Positions 2,182 through 19,560 of a DNA stretch of 64,000 bases are shown in pieces. The position numbers and the translations under genes are program-made. The notes beneath the pieces were generated by a model. It was not told the origin of the DNA. It worked only from the letters and a program-made list of their open reading frames with translations, and did not search any database. Position 1 is the stretch's first letter. Each line of letters starts with the position of its first letter. The stretch comes from Thermoflavimicrobium daqui (GTDB taxonomy: Bacteria; Bacillota; Bacilli; Thermoactinomycetales; Thermoactinomycetaceae): positions 186,001 through 250,000 of the forward strand of contig NZ_KZ845667.1 of assembly GCF_003313465.1 (NCBI RefSeq), read 5' to 3'.

Positions 2182-3213
2182 CTATTTTTTAGGAAACCCT
2201 GTCTCATATTGCTTAGGTATTGTTATTTCTTTATTGAGTTTAGCTGCGGCTTCCAATGTCCAATATGGATTTCTAAGCATTCCTCTTCCTACAGCCACAA
2301 GATCTGCATCTTCGTTCCCTATTATAGCGTTTGCCAGTGCTGGTTCATCTAACCTTCCAACCGCAATAACCGGAATATTAAGGGCTTTCTTAATTTCTCT
2401 AGCTAATGGCACTTGATAGGCAACATGTGTACCCGGTTTTCCTGCAGCAGCGATAGGGCCCTCCCCACCAGCACTAACATGAAAAGCATTTACACCCGCT
2501 TTTTGATATTCCCTAGAAAACTCTATACTTTCTTCAATTCCATATCCACCTTCTACATATTCTTTAGCCGATATACGCATAATTAACGGCATATCTGAAG
2601 GCATTTCACTTTTTGCAGCCTGAATGACTTCTTTACCAAACTTAGTTAACTCTTTCCCATACTCATCCGTTCTTTTATTCGTTAGTGGTGAGTGGAATTG
2701 ATGAATTAAGTATCCATGTGCCCCATGAATTTCAATAGCATCCATTCCGGCTTTTACAGCGCGCCGTACAGCAAAGCGGAATTTTTCCACCATTTCTTGC
2801 ACTTCTTCTGTAGATAATGCTCTTGGTGTTTTTGATTTATTGTCAAAAGGGATAGCTGATGGCGCTACAGGAACAGCAGCATCTTCAGCTTTACGCCCTG
2901 CGTGAGCTATTTGAATACCAACTTTAGCTCCATATTGATGACAAGCGTCTACAATACGTGTTAATGCAGGAATTTGGTCATCAGACCATAATCCTAAATC
3001 ATAATCGGTAATGCGACCATCAGGCTCCACGTCCGTCATTTCAATAATAATGAAACCCGCCCCTCCAATTGCTCTACTTACATAGTGCAAATAATGCCAA
3101 TCTGTTGCTATTCCATCTTTGTTGGTAACAGAGTATTGGCACATAGGGGGCATAACAACACGGTTTTTTAATTTCAATCCTTTTAATTGGTATGAGCTAA
3201 ATAGATGATCCAT
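2182..3213 (-). CDS. YqjM/NamA-type NADPH dehydrogenase (old yellow enzyme)
   Basis: About 343 residues from the ATG at 3213, which has AAGGAGA at the right distance. A longer frame to 3282 lacks a good ribosome binding site and its extra 23 residues do not fit the family. The (beta/alpha)8 flavoenzyme shows KNRVVMPPMCQYS at the FMN site, IQIAHAGRKA, IHGAHGYLIHQFHSPLTNKRTDEYG with the His pair that binds the substrate carbonyl, and VAVGRGMLRNPYW at the C-terminus. The family reduces activated C=C bonds and nitro compounds with NADPH. A MarR gene lies upstream on the same strand, with a repeat-rich gap holding a perfect palindrome at 3470. Confidence 0.92.
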   Translation of the reverse strand: MDHLFSSYQLKGLKLKNRVVMPPMCQYSVTNKDGIATDWHYLHYVSRAIGGAGFIIIEMTDVEPDGRITDYDLGLWSDDQIPALTRIVDACHQYGAKVGIQIAHAGRKAEDAAVPVAPSAIPFDNKSKTPRALSTEEVQEMVEKFRFAVRRAVKAGMDAIEIHGAHGYLIHQFHSPLTNKRTDEYGKELTKFGKEVIQAAKSEMPSDMPLIMRISAKEYVEGGYGIEESIEFSREYQKAGVNAFHVSAGGEGPIAAAGKPGTHVAYQVPLAREIKKALNIPVIAVGRLDEPALANAIIGNEDADLVAVGRGMLRNPYWTLEAAAKLNKEITIPKQYETGFPKK

Positions 3214-3342
3214 TATAATCTCCTTCTTCTTAGTATTTGTATCAACTTCATGACGGCGAAAATAGATTTCCCATTTTTCCACATAACAATTCGATACTTT
3301 CTTGATAAGATAAGTTATAAAATCAATCTTAATTAAAGTCGA

Positions 3343-3466
3343 GGTTTCCCTCCTAATCAGTCGCTCATCGTTTCCCCACTCACACCTGTAGCCTTACACA
3401 AAAACGATTCGCGGCTTCATCTAGGAATAATCTAGGTCTTGACTCGAGCTATGTAACATACTGAAA
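3343..3466. repeat. dispersed degenerate repeat, copy A
   Basis: About 120 bp related to 35472-35612: both have CTCCTAATYAGYCGCTCATC, then a TTCCCCA...CACTC stretch, then a CTAG(G/A)AATRATCTAG tail. Fragments of the same pattern occur near 27570-27612 and possibly at 54280-54330 and 57540-57570. No reading frame. It is probably the end of an old transposable element or a MITE-like unit. Confidence 0.5.
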
Positions 3467-3469
3467 GTC

Positions 3470-3503
3470 TAAAATTAAATGCATGCACATGCATTTAATT
3501 TTA
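3470..3503. promoter_or_regulatory. perfect 34-bp AT-rich palindrome upstream of the OYE gene
   Basis: Two perfect 16-bp arms (TAAAATTAAATGCATG and its complement) are separated by CA. It lies 257 bp before the OYE start and 148 bp after the MarR gene. No U tract follows on either strand, so it looks more like a binding site or cruciform than a terminator. It could be the operator of the adjacent MarR protein (inference). Confidence 0.5.
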
Positions 3504-3650
3504 CATAAAATAAATCGTGCCGTCAAATACTAATTTTCTAACTTATTCATAACAGGTTTTGACGGAATCGACTGACCTTTTCGGCTTTATTATAAAAAGA
3601 TCCCTTCAAAAGAAGGAATAAATGTGAAAATATAGCTTTTAATAGGAGCA

Positions 3651-4082
3651 TTATCTATTTAGCTGAACCATTAAGTTTTGCAACTCATCTTGGAGATCTA
3701 CTTTCGAAAATGCTTGTAAAAGTGTTTCATTAAAAGTAATTAAAGCTTTTTCAACTTTTTCTTCACCGATTTGGGTCAAAGAAGTATAGATATTTCTACG
3801 ATCATCCTCGCAAATCGTTCTTTGTAATGCACCACAACCTTTGGCTTCAAATCTACTTACAAGCCTTGACATCGCACTTTGACTCAAACCAACCATGTTC
3901 TGTAATTGTTGTAATTTTAATTTTTTAAGAGGGGCTTCGGATAAGAATAATAACACGTAGAATTCTTTTAAAGTTAATTGATGTTCTCTTTGTAGAGTGG
4001 CTTCCAATTCATTGGTAATGATTGTGTGGAAATGAGTTAGAGTTAGCCAACTCTTTATAGGATTTTTTTGATTTGTTTTCAT
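3651..4082 (-). CDS. MarR family transcriptional regulator
   Basis: A 143-residue winged-helix protein. LKLQQLQNMVGLSQSAMSRLVSRFEAKG is the recognition helix and CEDDRRNIYTSLTQIG is the wing with the conserved DxR. Two Cys (GCG and TICEDD) near the wing could be redox-sensitive. ATG 4082 follows AGGTGAAG. It is transcribed toward the OYE gene and may control it. Confidence 0.88.
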   Translation of the reverse strand: MKTNQKNPIKSWLTLTHFHTIITNELEATLQREHQLTLKEFYVLLFLSEAPLKKLKLQQLQNMVGLSQSAMSRLVSRFEAKGCGALQRTICEDDRRNIYTSLTQIGEEKVEKALITFNETLLQAFSKVDLQDELQNLMVQLNR

Positions 4083-4224
4083 ATGCTCTTCACCTATTCT
4101 AGGATTATATAGCTTTTTTAATTCAGATATTATCTTTTATACTTAGGTGTCATTTCATTAACTGTTTGAAATTAATAGTAACAAGGCAGTGTTTCAATAG
4201 TCAAACTGTACCTTTTTTAGTTCT

Positions 4225-4312
4225 ATTGACCACTCCACACTACAGCCCGTGGGATTCTTGAATAGTTAACATTTGCAGTCCGTTTCCGTTTTGAGCAATC
4301 AAGCTCAGGTTA
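4225..4312. mobile_element. IS200/IS605-type right-end scar 1
   Basis: A decayed copy of the sequence at 17251-17345. Both share GTGGGATTCTTG-like sequence followed by an identical 20-mer, GCAGTCCGTTTCCGTTTTGA. GGCTGAAGCC-type hairpins followed by GTGGGATTCTTGG are typical of the ends of TnpB-carrying IS605/IS1341-type elements. Here the hairpin is damaged and no tnpB remains nearby. Confidence 0.55.
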
Positions 4313-4494
4313 AGTTAAAATTTGCTTAACGTTAAATGCGTCGACAGATTTATAAGCTGCTTTTCGTTACTAGCTTTGGCAATCGGAAATTGATATGCTC
4401 TTCCAATAATATTGTTTTACTATTCAAAAACAAATAAAGTTATTGTCATTTTAATCTCCTCCAATTATAAGTAATAGTGAAAACTAATCTATCA

Positions 4495-5862
4495 CTAGAT
4501 GTCTTTTCTCTTTGATCTACCAAACTTGAAATAGTAAAACAACAGAATACCTATATGCAAAGCAGCAAGAACCAAATATATATTGCTATAAATAGTACCT
4601 TTAGGAAAAACATTCACTGGATTCCAATGAAAATTAGAGCCAAGATCAACCACCTTACCATAAACTCCTGAAGCCATCCCCCCTGCTATGAAATTCACCA
4701 TGGATAATAGCCCCATTCCCACTCCTTGTTGATCCTTGTGCAATGTTATAGAGACTGAATTTGACAAAGCAATCATTATAAAGGTTTGACCCACATTACC
4801 TAAGATTATAAAGATGGCAATGAATATTGGAGATATTCCAGTAAAGGTTGATAGTAAAATAAAACATGTCAATAGCAGGACAGATGCAACATAAAATAGA
4901 TACGTATTTCCTCTCAAGTCTGCCAGTTTCCCACCTACTCTTCCTAGAACTGCTGAAGCTACTGCAGCAGGAACCATTGCAAAACCGATTAAACTAGGCT
5001 GCAACTGTTGTACATGAGCCAAAAGCAATGGACTTAAAAACTGAAGAGAAAAACCAATTCCACTTATGAGAAAAGCAATCAATATTCTCAAAGTGTAGTT
5101 CTTATTTATAAAGATTCTAGGTTGAACAAATGGTTCGGAAACAGAACGAATTCGTACGATAAACAGCACTAAAGCAAGTAATCCGAAAATAGGAAACAAC
5201 CATGATCCATTCGTAACACCTAGAAGCAAAAAGGCTATTACCATAGCTAGTAAACAACCGCCAACCCAGTCAAATTTTCCAGACTGCTCTTCATCTTCAT
5301 TCTTTAAATATTGACGGTAAAAAGGTACCGTAAGTAAGCTAAAGAGAGGAATACAGAATAACCAACGCCAATGCGCAACACTTACAATTAATGCAGAAAT
5401 AATCGGACCAAGGGCACTGCCAATAGCCAAACCGACAAACACCGTACTCATAGCTGAACCTCTCTGGTCAGGGGGAAAATAACGTAATGGGATAAGCATA
5501 GCTGTTGCTGGAATAGCAGCAGCTCCTGCAGACTGTAAGCATCTTGCAACAAGTACCACCCAGAATGCCTGAGATGCTAAACCGATTAGTGAACCAAAAG
5601 CAAAAAATAACAATCCAATAGTTAACAAATTTTTGAGCCTAAAACGATCTGCAAGTTTCCCATAAATAACCGTCCCTATCCCATAAATCAAAGCATAAGA
5701 TGAAGTGACCCAGCTTACTTGAGCAGTGGTAAGCTTAAACTCTTTACTGATCTCTGGCAGTACAAAGTTAAACATCAATACACTCATCGCCGAAATGACA
5801 AGTGTGAACATTAAAACGCGTATCAATTTCTTGCCTACGTGTTTCCGATTATAATTTTCCAT
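4495..5862 (-). CDS. MFS drug exporter (Tet(L)/DHA2-like)
   Basis: 455 residues, highly hydrophobic, with about 14 predicted membrane segments. Motif A variant GKLADRFRLKNLLTIG lies after TM2, ARCLQSAGAAAIPATAMLIPLRYFPPDQRGSAMS in TM4-5 includes antiporter motif C-like Gly/Pro residues, and GGKLADLRGNTYLFYVA repeats motif A in the second half. Length and layout match Tet(L)/Tet(K)-type proton antiporters, but the substrate is unknown. ATG 5862 follows AAAGGAGTG. The TetR gene at 6048-6635 lies just upstream on the same strand, and a perfect palindrome touches the ribosome binding site. Confidence 0.88.
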   Translation of the reverse strand: MENYNRKHVGKKLIRVLMFTLVISAMSVLMFNFVLPEISKEFKLTTAQVSWVTSSYALIYGIGTVIYGKLADRFRLKNLLTIGLLFFAFGSLIGLASQAFWVVLVARCLQSAGAAAIPATAMLIPLRYFPPDQRGSAMSTVFVGLAIGSALGPIISALIVSVAHWRWLFCIPLFSLLTVPFYRQYLKNEDEEQSGKFDWVGGCLLAMVIAFLLLGVTNGSWLFPIFGLLALVLFIVRIRSVSEPFVQPRIFINKNYTLRILIAFLISGIGFSLQFLSPLLLAHVQQLQPSLIGFAMVPAAVASAVLGRVGGKLADLRGNTYLFYVASVLLLTCFILLSTFTGISPIFIAIFIILGNVGQTFIMIALSNSVSITLHKDQQGVGMGLLSMVNFIAGGMASGVYGKVVDLGSNFHWNPVNVFPKGTIYSNIYLVLAALHIGILLFYYFKFGRSKRKDI

Positions 5863-5877
5863 TAAATTTCACTCCTT

Positions 5878-5894
5878 TGTACCATGTTGGTACA
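5878..5894. promoter_or_regulatory. perfect palindrome upstream of the MFS exporter
   Basis: TGTACCA-TGT-TGGTACA, 7-bp arms, ending immediately before the AAAGGAGTG ribosome binding site. This size and position fit a repressor operator, probably of TetR type (inference). Confidence 0.55.
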
Positions 5895-6013
5895 GCGCAT
5901 TTTTTAGAAGGTTGATATGGGTGTCACCTCTGACTGACAAATACTTCATTTAAAAAGCTAGGGGAGTTTAAAGACCTAGCTCAAATCTAGCTTAATGTAA
6001 TTCATCAAGGGGT

Positions 6014-6025
6014 GTTAGTACTGAC
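6014..6025. promoter_or_regulatory. TetR-like half-palindrome between tetR and the exporter
   Basis: GTTAGTACTGAC closely matches GTCAGCACTGAC upstream of the tetR gene (6659). It lies inside a G4/C4 hairpin between tetR and the exporter, so the regulator may act at both places. Confidence 0.4.
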
Positions 6026-6047
6026 TGACTCATCCCCTTATAAAATA

Positions 6048-6635
6048 CTAGGGAGTTAATGCCCTAGTGAATGTTTGCACTGTCTCTATTATAAATGTGT
6101 CTAGAGATACGTTTATAATATCATCGGAATCTAAGTTGTTCATAAAGGCACCGAAATTCAGCATCATAAACGATAACGCCTGAACCTTAAAGTCTGTTCG
6201 AATCAGTTTTCCCTTTTCGTACATAGTTACAAAATAATTAGTCAAAATATCCAGTAATTGTTGAGGGTGTTTTTGTGTTCTTTCTCTAAGGCCGGGTAAG
6301 TTACCTTCCTCCTTAATGCTGATCATAATCATTTTTCGATTACGATTCATAATTTCATGATATGTCCGACTGATTAGGAGCAAATCGGTCTGCAAATCCC
6401 ATACGAGCTTCTCGTTAAAAAGTTTTGTTATCTCTTCGGCATAATGAAAACGGTCAAATGCCTTTTCGAGAAGGTTTCGTTTGCTTCCGAATCGGCGAAA
6501 CAGCGTTTTTTCACTTAAGCCTGCTGCGGTAGCGATCTCCTGTGTGGATACACCATTATATCCTTTCGCTGCCATTAGATCAATGGTCGCTAACAGTAGC
6601 TTATCATCGTTGCTTAAATTATTACCGTTGCTCAT
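6048..6635 (-). CDS. TetR/AcrR family regulator (paralogue 1)
   Basis: 195 residues with an N-terminal helix-turn-helix: DKLLLATIDLMAAKGYNGVS, TQEIATAAGLSEKTLFRRFGSKRNLL. The rest is the ligand-binding domain. It is a clear paralogue of the protein at 18787-19380, with the same length, shared EIMNRNRKM, LVWDL and identical FTRALTP/FARALTP ends. It is upstream of and codirectional with the MFS exporter, which it probably represses. A GTCAGCACTGAC dyad lies upstream of its start. Confidence 0.9.
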   Translation of the reverse strand: MSNGNNLSNDDKLLLATIDLMAAKGYNGVSTQEIATAAGLSEKTLFRRFGSKRNLLEKAFDRFHYAEEITKLFNEKLVWDLQTDLLLISRTYHEIMNRNRKMIMISIKEEGNLPGLRERTQKHPQQLLDILTNYFVTMYEKGKLIRTDFKVQALSFMMLNFGAFMNNLDSDDIINVSLDTFIIETVQTFTRALTP

Positions 6636-6658
6636 ACTTTCATCCTTCCCAGCTGATT

Positions 6659-6670
6659 GTCAGCACTGAC
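6659..6670. promoter_or_regulatory. candidate operator of TetR paralogue 1
   Basis: GTCAG-CA-CTGAC is a perfect 5-bp dyad, flanked by TGTCA, 24 bp upstream of the tetR start. It recurs in degenerate form at 6014, consistent with autoregulation (inference). Confidence 0.5.
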
Positions 6671-6720
6671 TGTCATTTGATTACATCATATTTTTTTGTT
6701 TTAAATTTGTCAAGGAAAAT

Positions 6721-6792: not shown

Positions 6793-7111
6793 TTTCTTTT
6801 ACTTATCAAAATCTTTCAGCAGTAAAAATCTGCCACAATTTTGATTCCTAACCTGTTATTATATGAAACTAATTTCTTTGTACCTTATGGACCATGCCCG
6901 CCTGATTAGAATATTTATGGAGGATTTTTCGAATACCTCGATCAGTATATTTCTTCTTCCAAGACGATTCAAAAAAGTAAATAGCCCCTTTCCTTTTGTT
7001 TGGTATTTTCATATTATTACGAATGAACACTACTGTTGAAATAAACAACTATTAATGAAACTCCAATTATATTATACTTAAATAGTAAAAGAAAAAAATG
7101 GAGGAACACCA

Positions 7112-7558
7112 ATGGCAAACAATCTAGAACAATCAAAAAACATTGGAGAAGAGGAATACTTACTTGTAGAACAGTATAAAGATATTACGGCGTCCCGCCA
7201 ACATTATAGCAGCCTTCGATTTGCGCTTTTACCAGTTTTTCTTGCCATACAAGGAGCGATTCTAAATTCTGCAATTAATATTAAAGCGGACCAAGCGATT
7301 CAAATCCCCATTTATTTATTTGCTCTTGCTGCCTGTTTAATTACATATGTCTTTTGGACGATTGAGGAACGTATTAATCTATATTATCAACAGCTGGAGA
7401 GCATTGGTGCTGAATTAGAGGACCTTTTAGGCTATCAGGTGAAAATGATAAAAAAATGGTCAAAAACCTCGTTTAGTAATAATACAAAACTATCTATTCG
7501 CATTATTCACTTTTCTTTCCCTGTAGTATGGTTGTATATCGTTATATTTCTTTCATAA
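7112..7558 (+). CDS. small membrane protein, three predicted TM helices
   Basis: 148 residues, not assigned to a family with certainty. A charged N-terminus (EEEYLLVEQYKDITASRQHY) leads into a TM helix near 34-56, a second near 64-82 ending in FWTIEERINLYYQQLESIGAELEDLL, and a C-terminal helix (SFPVVWLYIVIFLS). The two-helix-plus-cytoplasmic-helix plan resembles SLATT-type membrane modules found near defence NTPases. ATG 7112 follows TGGAGGAACACC. A terminator-like hairpin separates it from the STAND NTPase downstream. Confidence 0.75.
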   Translation: MANNLEQSKNIGEEEYLLVEQYKDITASRQHYSSLRFALLPVFLAIQGAILNSAINIKADQAIQIPIYLFALAACLITYVFWTIEERINLYYQQLESIGAELEDLLGYQVKMIKKWSKTSFSNNTKLSIRIIHFSFPVVWLYIVIFLS

Positions 7559-7779
7559 TTGAATTTCATGTTAACCCAATTGACATAGTCAGAGAATTCA
7601 AGTGTCAGATGCTTAAGACTGGTATCAGTCAGTGGACGAACAAATTCGGTTTTGAATTATTACATTGCTATAGCCATCTTAAAGCACAGATTCAAATAGA
7701 AAGTTGGGAAGAACAAGTCCATTCATTAATGGTGTTTTTAAAATATATACATATTAGATCCCGAACGTATATTCCCTTC

Positions 7780-7819
7780 ATCGGCTTCTTCTGGTATAAT
7801 GAAACCAGAAGAAGCCGAT
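7780..7819 (+). terminator. stem-loop between the membrane protein and the STAND NTPase
   Basis: A perfect 16-bp stem (ATCGGCTTCTTCTGGT and complement), 8-nt loop, followed by TTTAGTTT. It could terminate the upstream gene or attenuate transcription into the NTPase. Confidence 0.6.
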
Positions 7820-7905
7820 TTAGTTTATGAATGAATCATATTAAAGAAGGTGAGGATTTAAACTGAATAAGTTTGATGTATTTCTTAATAAACTGGAGGA
7901 TGAAA

Positions 7906-10900
7906 ATGATTAAGCCGTTTAACAACTGGGAAAGATGCTGGATGAAACGTGTTGAATATAAAATCTATCATGAAAAAGGAATTTCAGATAATACGGTTGG
8001 ATCAAAACCGAAACTATATACAACCGATGAAATTTCTCAGAAATCATGGCTAGTGATCCTTGGGGAACCAGGAATCGGTAAAACAACCGTCTTACGAAGT
8101 GAATATGAAAAATGTAAACAAAAATATAAAGGTAGTAAAGATGAGGTTCACTTTATTGATTTGCGTCATGTAAACACATGGGAACATTTTAAGAAGACCC
8201 TCTTTCAGCAAGACTTTATTCAAAGGTGGATCAAACAGGATCATCATTTATATCTCTTCATTGATCATGTTGATGACATCATCGGAGAAGATCAAGAATT
8301 TAAAAGGGATGCATATGAATATTGGTATGATTCCTCATTTATGGAGGAAGTGTACGGCCTGGATGAAAAAAAGGACCGTCATCGTCTTACAATTCGCATG
8401 GCTTGCAGAACGGGAGTTTGGGCATCTGGCTTAACGAATTTCATCGAAGGTTTCTGGTGGGAGGAAGAAGAATGTTTTGGTGTTTATCAGTTGTTACCTT
8501 TAAATCAGCAAAATGTGATTCAAACCCTGACATCCTATGGAGTGGATCAAGCTGCAATTGAATCTTGCCTACAACATCTACAAAACAAAAAGATAGCTTC
8601 CTTTGTGTTTCAACCAGAAGCATGCAATATGTTTCTACAGCTATTTTTAAATGGAACAAAATCACTCCCTCATTCCAAAGTAGATCTTTATGAGCAAACT
8701 TGTCGAGTGTACTGTAAAAAAGTGGATAATAAAACCGCTGTATCACTCCTAGAAAAAGCTTCAGAGATGGCGGCAATGATAATTTTCTCCGGCTGAGATA
8801 CCGCTAATCTTGACAAAATACTTCAAACATTAAGTGAATCATTTGACGAACAGACCATACAGAAAATCTTGGAGACGGGTTTATTTACGGTACAAAAGCA
8901 AGATGGAACAGTCGGTTTCCATCAAACTTATGTTGAATATTTAGCTGCTCGTTATATTTCTCAAATCGATAGCACTGACAAAATCATGAAGCTTTTGATG
9001 CATCCTCAAGACAACGGGAAGGTTGTTCCGCAATTGCAACATACGGCTGCTTGGGTAGCCACTATGAATACGAAGGTTTTTGACCGAATATTTCTAACTG
9101 ACCATAACACATTATTTTTGATTCATTCTTCTGATTTAAGTGAACAACAAAAAGCCAAGCTAACTCGGAAGTTCTTGGAAACGGTACAATCGAAGGATCG
9201 AGTTAATTGGAATGCTAATTATTTGAATTATAAACAGTTTAATTGTAAAGACCTCCCTGATATACTGCGTGAATTTTTCATGTCTCCTGATTACAATGAA
9301 TTTAAACGTCTGATCGCTTTAGAAATTGCTTTACAAAACCAACTCACTGTTTTAAAAGAAGATTTGCTTCATTTGGTGTTTCACGAACAACCTTCGGAAA
9401 AAATTCAATGGAAAGCAATCTATGTTTGGATGCATTTATCTAATAAACAGGAATGGATTCAGCTAAAGCCGCTACTCTTTGCTGAAAACCGATTAAATAT
9501 ATCTATGCGTAAGTTTTTGTTTAAACACCTTCTAAAAAATCAGTTATTGTCAATGCAGGAATTTACTTTTGTAAGTGAAATTATGCATCAAAAAAAGGAA
9601 GGTACTGAAGAGGTCATCTCCACATTGGACGATAAAGTACTTATACAGATCTTTCAGTGGTATCTTGCCGATCCAAATCCATCTGAAATAATGGAAATAA
9701 TGATGGATCAGTTATTGGTTTATGCTGTTCCCTTTATTCATGTACCACAAGTAGCAGAAGTATGGTATCAAGTGGTCTCCTTTCGGTATCAACAGAACCG
9801 AGAAATTGCCACTTTTTTACGTTTCTCTTCATGTGATCATGTTGTCGCTAAGATTGCCAATAGCTATCAGAATGAAACACTACGTCAACAGTTTATCCTT
9901 CTATTGATCAATCCGGAACAAAAATTCGACTTAGATAATTCTAAACCCTTACAAGTACAGGACTTCCATCAAATCCTATTCCGTGAGAAACAAAATTTAT
10001 TAAACTCAGCGGATGCAACTTGGGCAAGTAAGCATAGAGAGGCTAGTAATGACACAAAAAAACCACTTTGGGATTGGATATTGAAACATTTGCAAGCAGA
10101 AAAGGAAGAACTCAGAGCTTTTTTTGGCATACCTGAGTTTCAGAAGTCAGTCGATCAAGCAAAAGAAGAAGTGGAAGAGTTAGAAATTTCGGATGAGAAA
10201 ATAGTATCCTCTTGGTCTTCTATCAGCGACTTTGATCCATTAATCGGTGAACCACCTATTGTTAGAGAAGCAACTGAAAAATTATACCAAGATCCAAAAA
10301 TACAGGAAAAGCTAATTACAGCATCCATTAAATTTATCTACCAGTGTCAATTGGAAGAAGCAGAATATATGAATGAATCTTCAAAGATAGCGGAGGCTGC
10401 GCGTATGGCCTTTCGGATTCTTTGTAAAATCAACTTAGATTTATTACAAAAGCTTCCAAATGAAGTATGGCGAAAATGGAGTCCTTTCCTTATTTTCCCT
10501 GATCCAAAACAGGATTCGTTAACCGCTAACTTTAGTAGAGAAAAGTATAAACTCGACCAACAAATTTTATCAATCGCTTTAACAAAAATTCCGGAAACAG
10601 TGGAAACGGTATTTTTCCAGCTAGTAGAAAAGATGGATCATCCCCATTATTTAATTAAGAACTTTTTTCAAATTCATTGGAGCTCTTCAATGGAAAATCA
10701 CTTCTTTCAAAAACTACAAAGCAAAGATTTTCCTTTACATAAGCTTGGAGTAGTCCTTGGAGAGTTGCTTACAAAAAACTGTAAACAAACAGTAAAATGG
10801 GTTCAGTCTATCTTAATAAATCCATCTTTCGAGTCTGTTATAGAGAGAGAAAAAATTGTTATTGCAACTTATTGTTATCTCATTACACATCCTAACGATG

Positions 10901-11301
10901 AAGGATGGAAAATCGTTTTAACATTGTTTTCCAAAGATCCTGCATTGGGGTTGGAAATCGTTTCCACACTGGTAGATGGCATCGTCGGATTTCGAAGAGG
11001 GTTTATTACTTACGAATTAGCTTGGCAATTTCGTACTTTGCATGAAAAAACACTGGAGGCTTTTTATTTATGGCTATGCGAAAACCAAGATCGGTTAGAT
11101 CAAGAAAGCTATGTTTATAGTATAGTCCAGCAGTGGACGACCGTAATTCTTAACGAACTGCGTTATCGAAAAGCCGTTCCAGCTTATGAAACCTTAAAAC
11201 GATTGTTAACTATCTATCCCGATAACCCTGAGATAAAGCACTACTGGGACTGGTGTGAAACAGACTATCTACGAGCTATATGGGAACCGAAGCCGATTTA
11301 A
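7906..11301 (+). pseudogene. STAND (NACHT-like) NTPase with helical-repeat C-terminus, interrupted by one in-frame TGA
   Basis: One continuous frame of about 1,131 codons broken only by TGA at 8794-8796 (codon 297). ATG 7906 is chosen because GGAGG lies 6 nt upstream. Walker A GEPGIGKTT is at 53-61, Walker B LYLFIDHVDD at 115-124, then RMACRTGVWASG (sensor region). After the stop the frame continues at once, with HQTYVEYLAARY at 339-350, the typical end of STAND ATPase modules, then about 780 residues of helical, HEAT-like sequence. Such proteins sense phage or cell stress and trigger defence. No strong ribosome binding site was found for a second start, so the gene is either recently inactivated, a sequencing error, or read through. 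Confidence 0.8.
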
Positions 11302-11470
11302 TCCCATATTTGATCAAAGAACTACTTGAATTTGTTTCGCAGAGCTCTATTTATAATACTTTATTTCGCCTGCAAACTATGAAAACTCCCCCTCCTGTTA
11401 TTGGATTCTTCTCTAATACGGGCTCTAGCAGCTTTAGACCGAGTATTACAATAAACCTACTTTATATACG

Positions 11471-11515
11471 AAACATCGGTTTTTCGCTACTCATAACGAA
11501 AAATCGATGTTTTTT
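11471..11515 (+). terminator. terminator after the STAND NTPase
   Basis: AACATCGGTTTTTCG pairs with CGAAAAATCGATGTT around a short loop and runs into TTTTTTC. The 11302-11470 gap before it holds no other gene. Confidence 0.7.
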
Positions 11516-11569
11516 CACTTCTGCCTCCATTCCTTTTTATATTTATAATCCTTCAAATTTCACTGGAGA

Positions 11570-11998
11570 CTATTCCTTCGCAAGAATTATTTGGACTGAA
11601 GAATGCCCTAGATATGCTCTCCAAGGACCTACCTCTTCATGATAATTCTTTGCCATCACTCTGACGATTTGCCCGATGTGATTGCGGATGGTTTCAAATT
11701 CATCGAGCAGTATTTCAATAGCATTATGTTTTTTCTTATGAAGATGGGCGAATCGATCAACAGGGTCAAATATCTTTGTGTCCCCATGATTCATAATAAT
11801 TTGAATGCGATTAACCCAATCTGTTTTTTCTCCATGAATCAAATGCCCTAACACGTCAAAAGGTGACCAAGTATTCTCTCCTTCATTAGAGTGGAGCCAA
11901 TCATTTGGTAAGCCTTCTAGCATCAAACGCAATACCTTTGGTGTTCTTGAAAGAATGTCCAGCACATCATCTATACGAAATCTCGAATTATTAGACAT
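11570..11998 (-). pseudogene. DinB family protein with internal deletion
   Basis: 142 residues. The N-terminal half is normal (WSPFDVLGHLIHGEKTDWVNR) but LLDEFETIRN is joined directly to HIGQIVRVMAKNYHEEVGPWRAYLG. In relatives a segment of roughly 45-55 residues ending in W-x-x-HDxxHIxQ lies between these. The deletion removes most of the second metal-binding helix, so the His triad is incomplete. The C-terminus HSSVQIILAKE also looks replaced. ATG 11998 has a usable GAGAGGG. Probably non-functional. Confidence 0.65.
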
Positions 11999-12111
11999 TT
12001 TGCAAAACCCTCTCTCTTTTATATTTACATCAAATTATTGCTCACTCCTGTTCTGTTCAGATACACTTAAAATAACTAGATTTGTATAATGTTTCTATTA
12101 GGAGTGATTAT

Positions 12112-18786: not shown

Positions 18787-19380
18787 CTAGGGGGTTAATG
18801 CCCTAGCAAATAGCTGTACACTTGTTCTTATAAATTCTTCCATTGATATACTTGTAAGTGGTACATCGCTAACCAAATTACTTATAAATGCACCATAGTT
18901 CATCCACATAAAGGACATCGCTTGAGCTTCTGTATTGGTTGAGATCATCTTGCCTCTCTCTTGCATAGTGGTGAAATATTTTACCAATAACTCTTTGAGC
19001 TGCCGGGGATGCTTATTCATTTTTTCATAGGAATTGGATAAATGATTCCCTTCCTTTAAGGCGATCAGAAACATCTTCCGATTCCGATTCATAATTGCAT
19101 GATATGATTTACTAATAAGAAGCAAATCTTCCTCTAGATCCCATACTAGATTTTGACTAAACAGTTTTTTCATCTCTACAGAATAATGAAAACGATCAAC
19201 TGCTGTTTCTAAAAGGTTTTTCTTGCTACCAAAATGGCGAAATAGCGTCATCTCACTGACACCAGCCACAGCAGCAATTTCCTTTGTTGATACTCCCTTA
19301 TATCCTTTTTCCGCCATTAAATCAATGGCTGCCAACATAATTTTATCACTGGTACTTAAATGAATATCGTTTATTTCCAT
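18787..19380 (-). CDS. TetR/AcrR family regulator (paralogue 2)
   Basis: About 197 residues from ATG 19380 (AAGGAAGGAATAAAATAC upstream). Helix-turn-helix STKEIAAVAGVSEMTLFRHFGSKKNLL. Extensive identity with paralogue 1 at 6048 (GVST, EIMNRNRKM/AIMNRNRKM, LVWDL, ARALTP). The perfect dyad 19402-19417 lies 21 bp upstream of the start and suggests autorepression. Its neighbour is a MarR-like gene rather than an exporter. Confidence 0.9.
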   Translation of the reverse strand: MEINDIHLSTSDKIMLAAIDLMAEKGYKGVSTKEIAAVAGVSEMTLFRHFGSKKNLLETAVDRFHYSVEMKKLFSQNLVWDLEEDLLLISKSYHAIMNRNRKMFLIALKEGNHLSNSYEKMNKHPRQLKELLVKYFTTMQERGKMISTNTEAQAMSFMWMNYGAFISNLVSDVPLTSISMEEFIRTSVQLFARALTP

Positions 19381-19401
19381 GTATTTTATTCCTTCCTTGA
19401 T

Positions 19402-19417
19402 GTTAGTAAATACTAAC
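19402..19417. promoter_or_regulatory. operator dyad upstream of tetR-2
   Basis: GTTAGTA-AA-TACTAAC, a perfect 7-bp dyad directly upstream of the tetR-2 ribosome binding site. Confidence 0.6.
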
Positions 19418-19560
19418 AACACCCTACATTCATTATATTTTGACCACTAATTGTTGTCAAGAATTATTTTCTAACTCTTCATTTTATTATTTAGCAGTTG
19501 TTTTTCAACATCCAAATTGGTATAATTTTGGATATAAAACAGTGAAAGGAGAGTATCCAT

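What the first reader, a model, noticed from the sequence alone, without database searches (positions are those of the whole stretch)
7906..11301. STAND NTPase split by a single in-frame TGA
The frame is intact for 1,131 codons apart from TGA at codon 297, with conserved motifs on both sides (Walker A/B before, HQTYVEYLAARY after). No frameshift or other decay is visible, so the stop is recent, is a sequencing error, or is read through. Split or read-through control of a defence ATPase would be unusual.
Basis: seen in the sequence. Interest (0 to 1): 0.6.

Follow-up and report, generated by a model that had tools for sequence, protein, structure and literature searches.

The report
Broken copy of a phage-defence ATPase
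This is a recently broken copy of a known type of bacterial anti-phage protein: besides the stop codon in its middle, it has also lost the nuclease-like part that every intact relative carries, so it looks like ordinary gene decay rather than a new kind of control.

Summary
In detail: 7906-11301 is one reading frame with a single internal stop, TGA at 8794-8796 (codon 297), and both halves belong to one gene. Both halves match, in order, the same NCBIfam model (NF058535, NACHT antiphage protein EruA). Fifteen relatives from genomes and plasmids, plus one viral contig, encode the protein as one uninterrupted frame of 1253-1427 aa. At the TGA column, 15 of these 16 have Arg or Lys, so a single Arg-to-TGA change explains the stop. 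The acidic Walker B residue and other conserved residues have also changed. I found no support for programmed read-through: no tRNA-Sec, no SelB above cut-off, no stable hairpin after the TGA, no good restart site nearby. Two further relatives are broken in other ways (one frameshifted, one 5'-truncated). Best reading: a young pseudogene of an EruA-like bNACHT defence gene. Leaky read-through, or an assembly error at the TGA, cannot be excluded, but neither explains the missing nuclease.

The parts
7896..7900 (+). Ribosome-binding site (GGAGG) for the ATG at 7906
   Evidence: Sequence; anti-SD duplex -9.3 kcal/mol
7906..8793 (+). N-terminal piece, 296 aa: STAND/NACHT ATPase core with Walker A (LGEPGIGKTT) and degenerate Walker B (LFIDHVDD)
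   Evidence: Pfam AAA_22 E 5.5e-6; NCBIfam EruA E 2.2e-13; alignment to intact relatives
8794..8796 (+). In-frame TGA at a position that is Arg/Lys in 15 of 16 intact relatives
8797..11298 (+). Remainder of the same gene, 834 codons: end of ATPase module (HQTYVEYLAARY) and long helical/repeat-like region; terminal stop 11299-11301
   Evidence: NCBIfam EruA E 1.7e-12; 25-26% identity to L012/G025 over almost its full length
11278..11301 (+). Truncation point: ends IWEPKPI*, right where intact relatives continue W-x-P into a ~200-aa nuclease-like domain that is absent here

Best explanation
The locus is a recently inactivated gene for an EruA-like bacterial NACHT/STAND anti-phage protein. In intact relatives the N-terminal ATPase, a long helical sensor-like region and a C-terminal PD-(D/E)XK-like nuclease form one chain of about 1,400 residues (shown by sequence; nuclease by motif only). 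By analogy with characterised bNACHT proteins, the ATPase would assemble on sensing a phage and switch the nuclease on (inferred). In the window copy the nuclease-encoding 3' end is missing and a single base change, most simply an Arg codon (CGA or AGA) to TGA, stops translation after 296 residues (the state is shown, the base change inferred from relatives). The product would be a fragment without most of the sensor and without an effector, so no defence function is expected (inferred). The frame is otherwise open, so the stop is young. That the nuclease was lost first and the stop came later under relaxed selection is inferred.
For: Fifteen intact relatives from genomes and plasmids plus one from a viral contig, 1253-1427 aa, each in a single frame with no stop and all with the C-terminal REVEI...GERTDI...IIEVKGCW domain. 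That domain is absent from the window gene and from 11100-12100 in all six frames. The TGA column is Arg/Lys in 15 of 16, and Arg codons CGA/AGA are one step from TGA. Of 73 columns kept in at least 15 of 16 relatives the window keeps 48, some losses lying around the TGA and in Walker B. Longest end branch in the tree, 2.57 against 1.65 for its nearest relative. No SelB above cut-off; the top tRNA-Sec hit is tRNA-Ser(UGA). RNA after the stop is not structured (z 0.36). No ribosome-binding site at the first in-frame starts after the stop. Other broken copies in the family: a frameshift in G1051/L122 and a 5' truncation in G852/L123. The gene is absent from both other same-genus genomes held.
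Against: Coding periodicity and an open frame of 834 codons persist after the stop, so decay is very young at most. A divergent intact relative (L046) keeps as low a share of conserved columns (63%), so residue loss alone is weak evidence. No close relative was found, so dN/dS could not be measured. The nuclease-less state could in principle be an older functional variant rather than decay.
Confidence: 0.82

Rival explanations
1. The TGA is an assembly or sequencing error and the gene is a continuous 1,131-codon, nuclease-less STAND protein.
For: Frame intact on both sides; the genome is a 40-contig draft.
Against: A point error does not account for the missing nuclease or the changed Walker B; no reads are available to test it.
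Confidence: 0.1
2. The TGA is real but leaky (near-cognate Trp tRNA), so a little full-length protein is made and the gene is still under selection.
For: Open frame and coding periodicity downstream. In-frame stops in bacterial genes that keep purifying selection have been reported in bulk (PMC7918605).
Against: The position is Arg/Lys in relatives, not Trp; the effector domain is missing in any case; no stimulatory structure; no selenocysteine system; no relative examined shares the stop.
Confidence: 0.06
3. Two separate genes: a 296-aa ATPase and a restarted C-terminal protein act together, with a partner effector supplied by a neighbour (for example the small membrane protein at 7112-7558).
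For: A small membrane protein gene (weak Pfam 8xMP match) lies upstream on the same strand.
Against: No start codon with a ribosome-binding site before 9034, and later ones lie inside conserved sequence; a strong hairpin (7780-7819) lies between the two genes; no similar neighbour was seen in the ORF lists of the first seven relatives (by eye); all intact relatives are single chains.
Confidence: 0.02

Closest known systems
EruA (NCBIfam NF058535, NACHT domain-containing antiphage protein)
   Same: Both halves of the window gene and the full-length relatives match this model collinearly; several intact relatives match it over nearly its whole length, including the C-terminal part
   Different: All scores are far under the curated cut-off (1000 bits; best about 284), so these are a wider EruA-like group. 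The window copy is interrupted and lacks the C-terminal domain.
HyoA (NCBIfam NF058534)
   Same: Matches parts of two of the three full-length relatives scanned and weakly the window N-terminal piece
   Different: Lower scores than EruA; cut-off 1200 bits not approached
bNACHT25/32 (clade 6 bNACHT, PMC12169576)
   Same: NACHT-type ATPase plus a PD-(D/E)XK-type nuclease effector in one chain
   Different: bNACHT25 has the nuclease at the N-terminus; in the EruA-like relatives the nuclease-like domain is at the C-terminus, and in the window it is missing

Membership tests
STAND/NACHT-type P-loop NTPase | Walker A P-loop at the start of the ATPase module | tested here: met
   LGEPGIGKTT; Pfam AAA_22 above cut-off, 27.2 against 27 bits; NACHT and nSTAND3 models hit below cut-off
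STAND/NACHT-type P-loop NTPase | Walker B with acidic catalytic residue (DSxDE in relatives) | tested here: inconclusive
   Window has DHVDD: the E is replaced by D and the S by H
EruA (NF058535) | Score above curated cut-off (1000 bits) | tested here: not met
   49.3 and 46.3 bits for the two pieces; about 134-284 bits for intact relatives
EruA-like wider family | Collinear match of ATPase and middle region | tested here: met
EruA-like wider family | One uninterrupted frame of 1250-1430 aa | tested here: not met
   TGA at codon 297; total 1131 codons
EruA-like wider family | C-terminal PD-(D/E)XK-like domain (E...GERTDI...EVKG) | tested here: not met
   Absent; no remnant in 11100-12100
Selenoprotein (UGA recoding) | tRNA-Sec and SelB in the genome | tested here: not met
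   No SelB over cut-off; top tRNA-Sec hit is tRNA-Ser(UGA); a SelA-like protein alone
Anti-phage defence protein | Protection against phage | not testable with these tools
   Needs a plaque assay

The most novel reading that the evidence does not exclude
A nuclease-less, sensor-only EruA-like protein kept under selection, whose production is throttled by UGA read-through, for example as a decoy or regulator of other defence proteins.
Probability: 0.03. Interest if true: 0.6.

Novelty: new member of a known kind. Interest (0 to 1): 0.12.

Why it matters
Mostly as annotation: the locus should be called a pseudogene of an EruA-like defence gene. It adds one example to the turnover of large defence genes (3 of 19 family members examined here are broken). 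It also shows a wider EruA-like family with a conserved C-terminal PD-(D/E)XK-like domain, spread over Firmicutes and conjugative plasmids of other phyla, for which no Pfam model matched.

Tried and rejected
(1) A frameshift remnant of the nuclease just after 11292 (+1 frame reads ADLIPYLIKELLEFVSQS) looked similar by eye, but 69 of 1603 scored shuffles did as well: not counted. (2) A 12-mer shared by the hairpin at 7811 and the gene end at 11289 as a deletion junction: E 0.16-0.64, chance cannot be excluded. (3) Selenocysteine: rejected. (4) Hairpin-stimulated read-through: rejected. (5) Rfam elements at 6800-12100: none. (6) Close relatives in genome contigs, plasmids, phages and viral contigs: none close. 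(7) Structure of the nuclease-like domain (L046): pLDDT 48, not used; sequence searches of solved structures gave nothing usable. (8) Literature on EruA and HyoA as defence proteins: not found in the held library.

Full report
Observation. The frame 7906-11301 (+) was translated: 1,132 codons, one internal stop, TGA at 8794-8796 (codon 297), and a terminal TAA. At this base composition about 82 stops would be expected in a random frame of this length, so this is one coding sequence with one internal stop. The ATG at 7906 has a strong ribosome-binding site, and its N-terminus lines up with the N-termini of intact relatives.

What the gene is. The 296-aa piece before the stop matches Pfam AAA_22 just above cut-off and NACHT/nSTAND models below it. 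Against NCBIfam both pieces match the same model, NF058535, 'NACHT domain-containing antiphage protein EruA', at positions 104-241 and 259-552. Running that profile through the genome reports a match with '1 TGA' inside. Searches across Firmicutes genomes and plasmids found relatives at about 20-30% identity.

What intact relatives look like. Fifteen relatives from genomes and plasmids and one from a viral contig (L046) are each one open frame of 1253-1427 aa. They run ATPase, long middle region, then a C-terminal domain of about 200 aa with the strongly conserved pattern REVEI...GERTDI...IIEVKGCW...QL..RYL...GLYLVGWF. The spacing E...D...ExK is the signature of PD-(D/E)XK nucleases (established knowledge). 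A two-sequence AlphaFold model was too poor to use (pLDDT 48), so the nuclease assignment rests on motifs.

What is wrong with the window copy. (a) TGA: 15 of 16 intact relatives have Arg or Lys in that column. CGA or AGA (Arg) is one substitution from TGA. (b) The gene stops at IWEPKPI*, just after the W-x-P where relatives continue into the nuclease-like domain, and that domain is not found in any frame of 11100-12100 nor, as a significant match, anywhere in the window. (c) Of 73 columns conserved in at least 15 of 16 relatives, the window keeps 48; losses include Walker B (DSxDE to DHVDD) and residues beside the TGA, where the window also lacks about 12 residues before and up to about 20 after the stop that most relatives have. 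(d) Its end branch is the longest in the tree. Points (c) and (d) are weak alone, since divergent intact relatives come close. Points (a) and (b) together are what make decay the best reading.

Read-through and restart. The genome has no SelB above cut-off and its top tRNA-Sec-like hit is a tRNA-Ser with anticodon UGA. RNA after the stop is no more structured than shuffles (z 0.36). In-frame start codons before 9034 have no ribosome-binding site. No relative with a stop at this place was seen. In-frame stops kept under purifying selection do occur in bacteria (PMC7918605), so leaky read-through cannot be excluded by sequence; but even full read-through would give a protein without the effector domain.

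Family-level decay. Two other copies are also broken, differently: in G1051 (L122) a frameshift splits the gene into 423- and 987-codon frames; in G852 (L123) only the C-terminal 601 codons remain. Broken copies are therefore not rare in this family (3 of 19 examined), and both of those keep the C-terminal domain.

How it would work. In characterised bNACHT proteins the ATPase links phage sensing to a nuclease or other effector (PMC12169576). The intact EruA-like relatives probably work the same way with a C-terminal nuclease (inferred). The window copy would make at most a 296-aa ATPase fragment. Verdict: young pseudogene; interest low.

Noticed in passing
window 11570-11998 (-): The convergent neighbour, a DinB_2 family gene, lacks about 42 residues (including the WVVHD segment) compared with a Hymenobacter DinB family sequence, which is itself annotated as two CDS, and has an unusual C-terminus: it may be decayed too.
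   Followed up: partly
window 7780-7819: Strong inverted repeat (ATCGGCTTCTTCTGGT...ACCAGAAGAAGCCGAT), terminator-like, between the small membrane protein gene and the broken gene; 12 bp of one arm recur at 11289.
   Followed up: partly
window 7112-7558 (+): Small membrane protein with a weak match to Pfam 8xMP (PF24838), on the same strand upstream of the broken gene.
   Followed up: no
window 7863-7913 (+): Short frame LNKFDVFLNKLEDEND* beginning at a CTG with a possible ribosome-binding site and overlapping the ATG at 7906; leader peptide or remnant.
   Followed up: no
window 6048-6635 (-) and 18787-19422 (-): Two TetR-type regulators about 74% identical in part of their DNA, a local duplication.
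   Followed up: no
L122 (G1051) 2518-6676 and L123 (G852) 4169-5974: Two other broken EruA-like genes: a frameshift in the middle and a 5' truncation.
   Followed up: yes
L010 3990-8216, L011 3999-8246: Intact EruA-like genes on conjugative plasmids of Dolichospermum and Bradyrhizobium, annotated hypothetical.
   Followed up: partly
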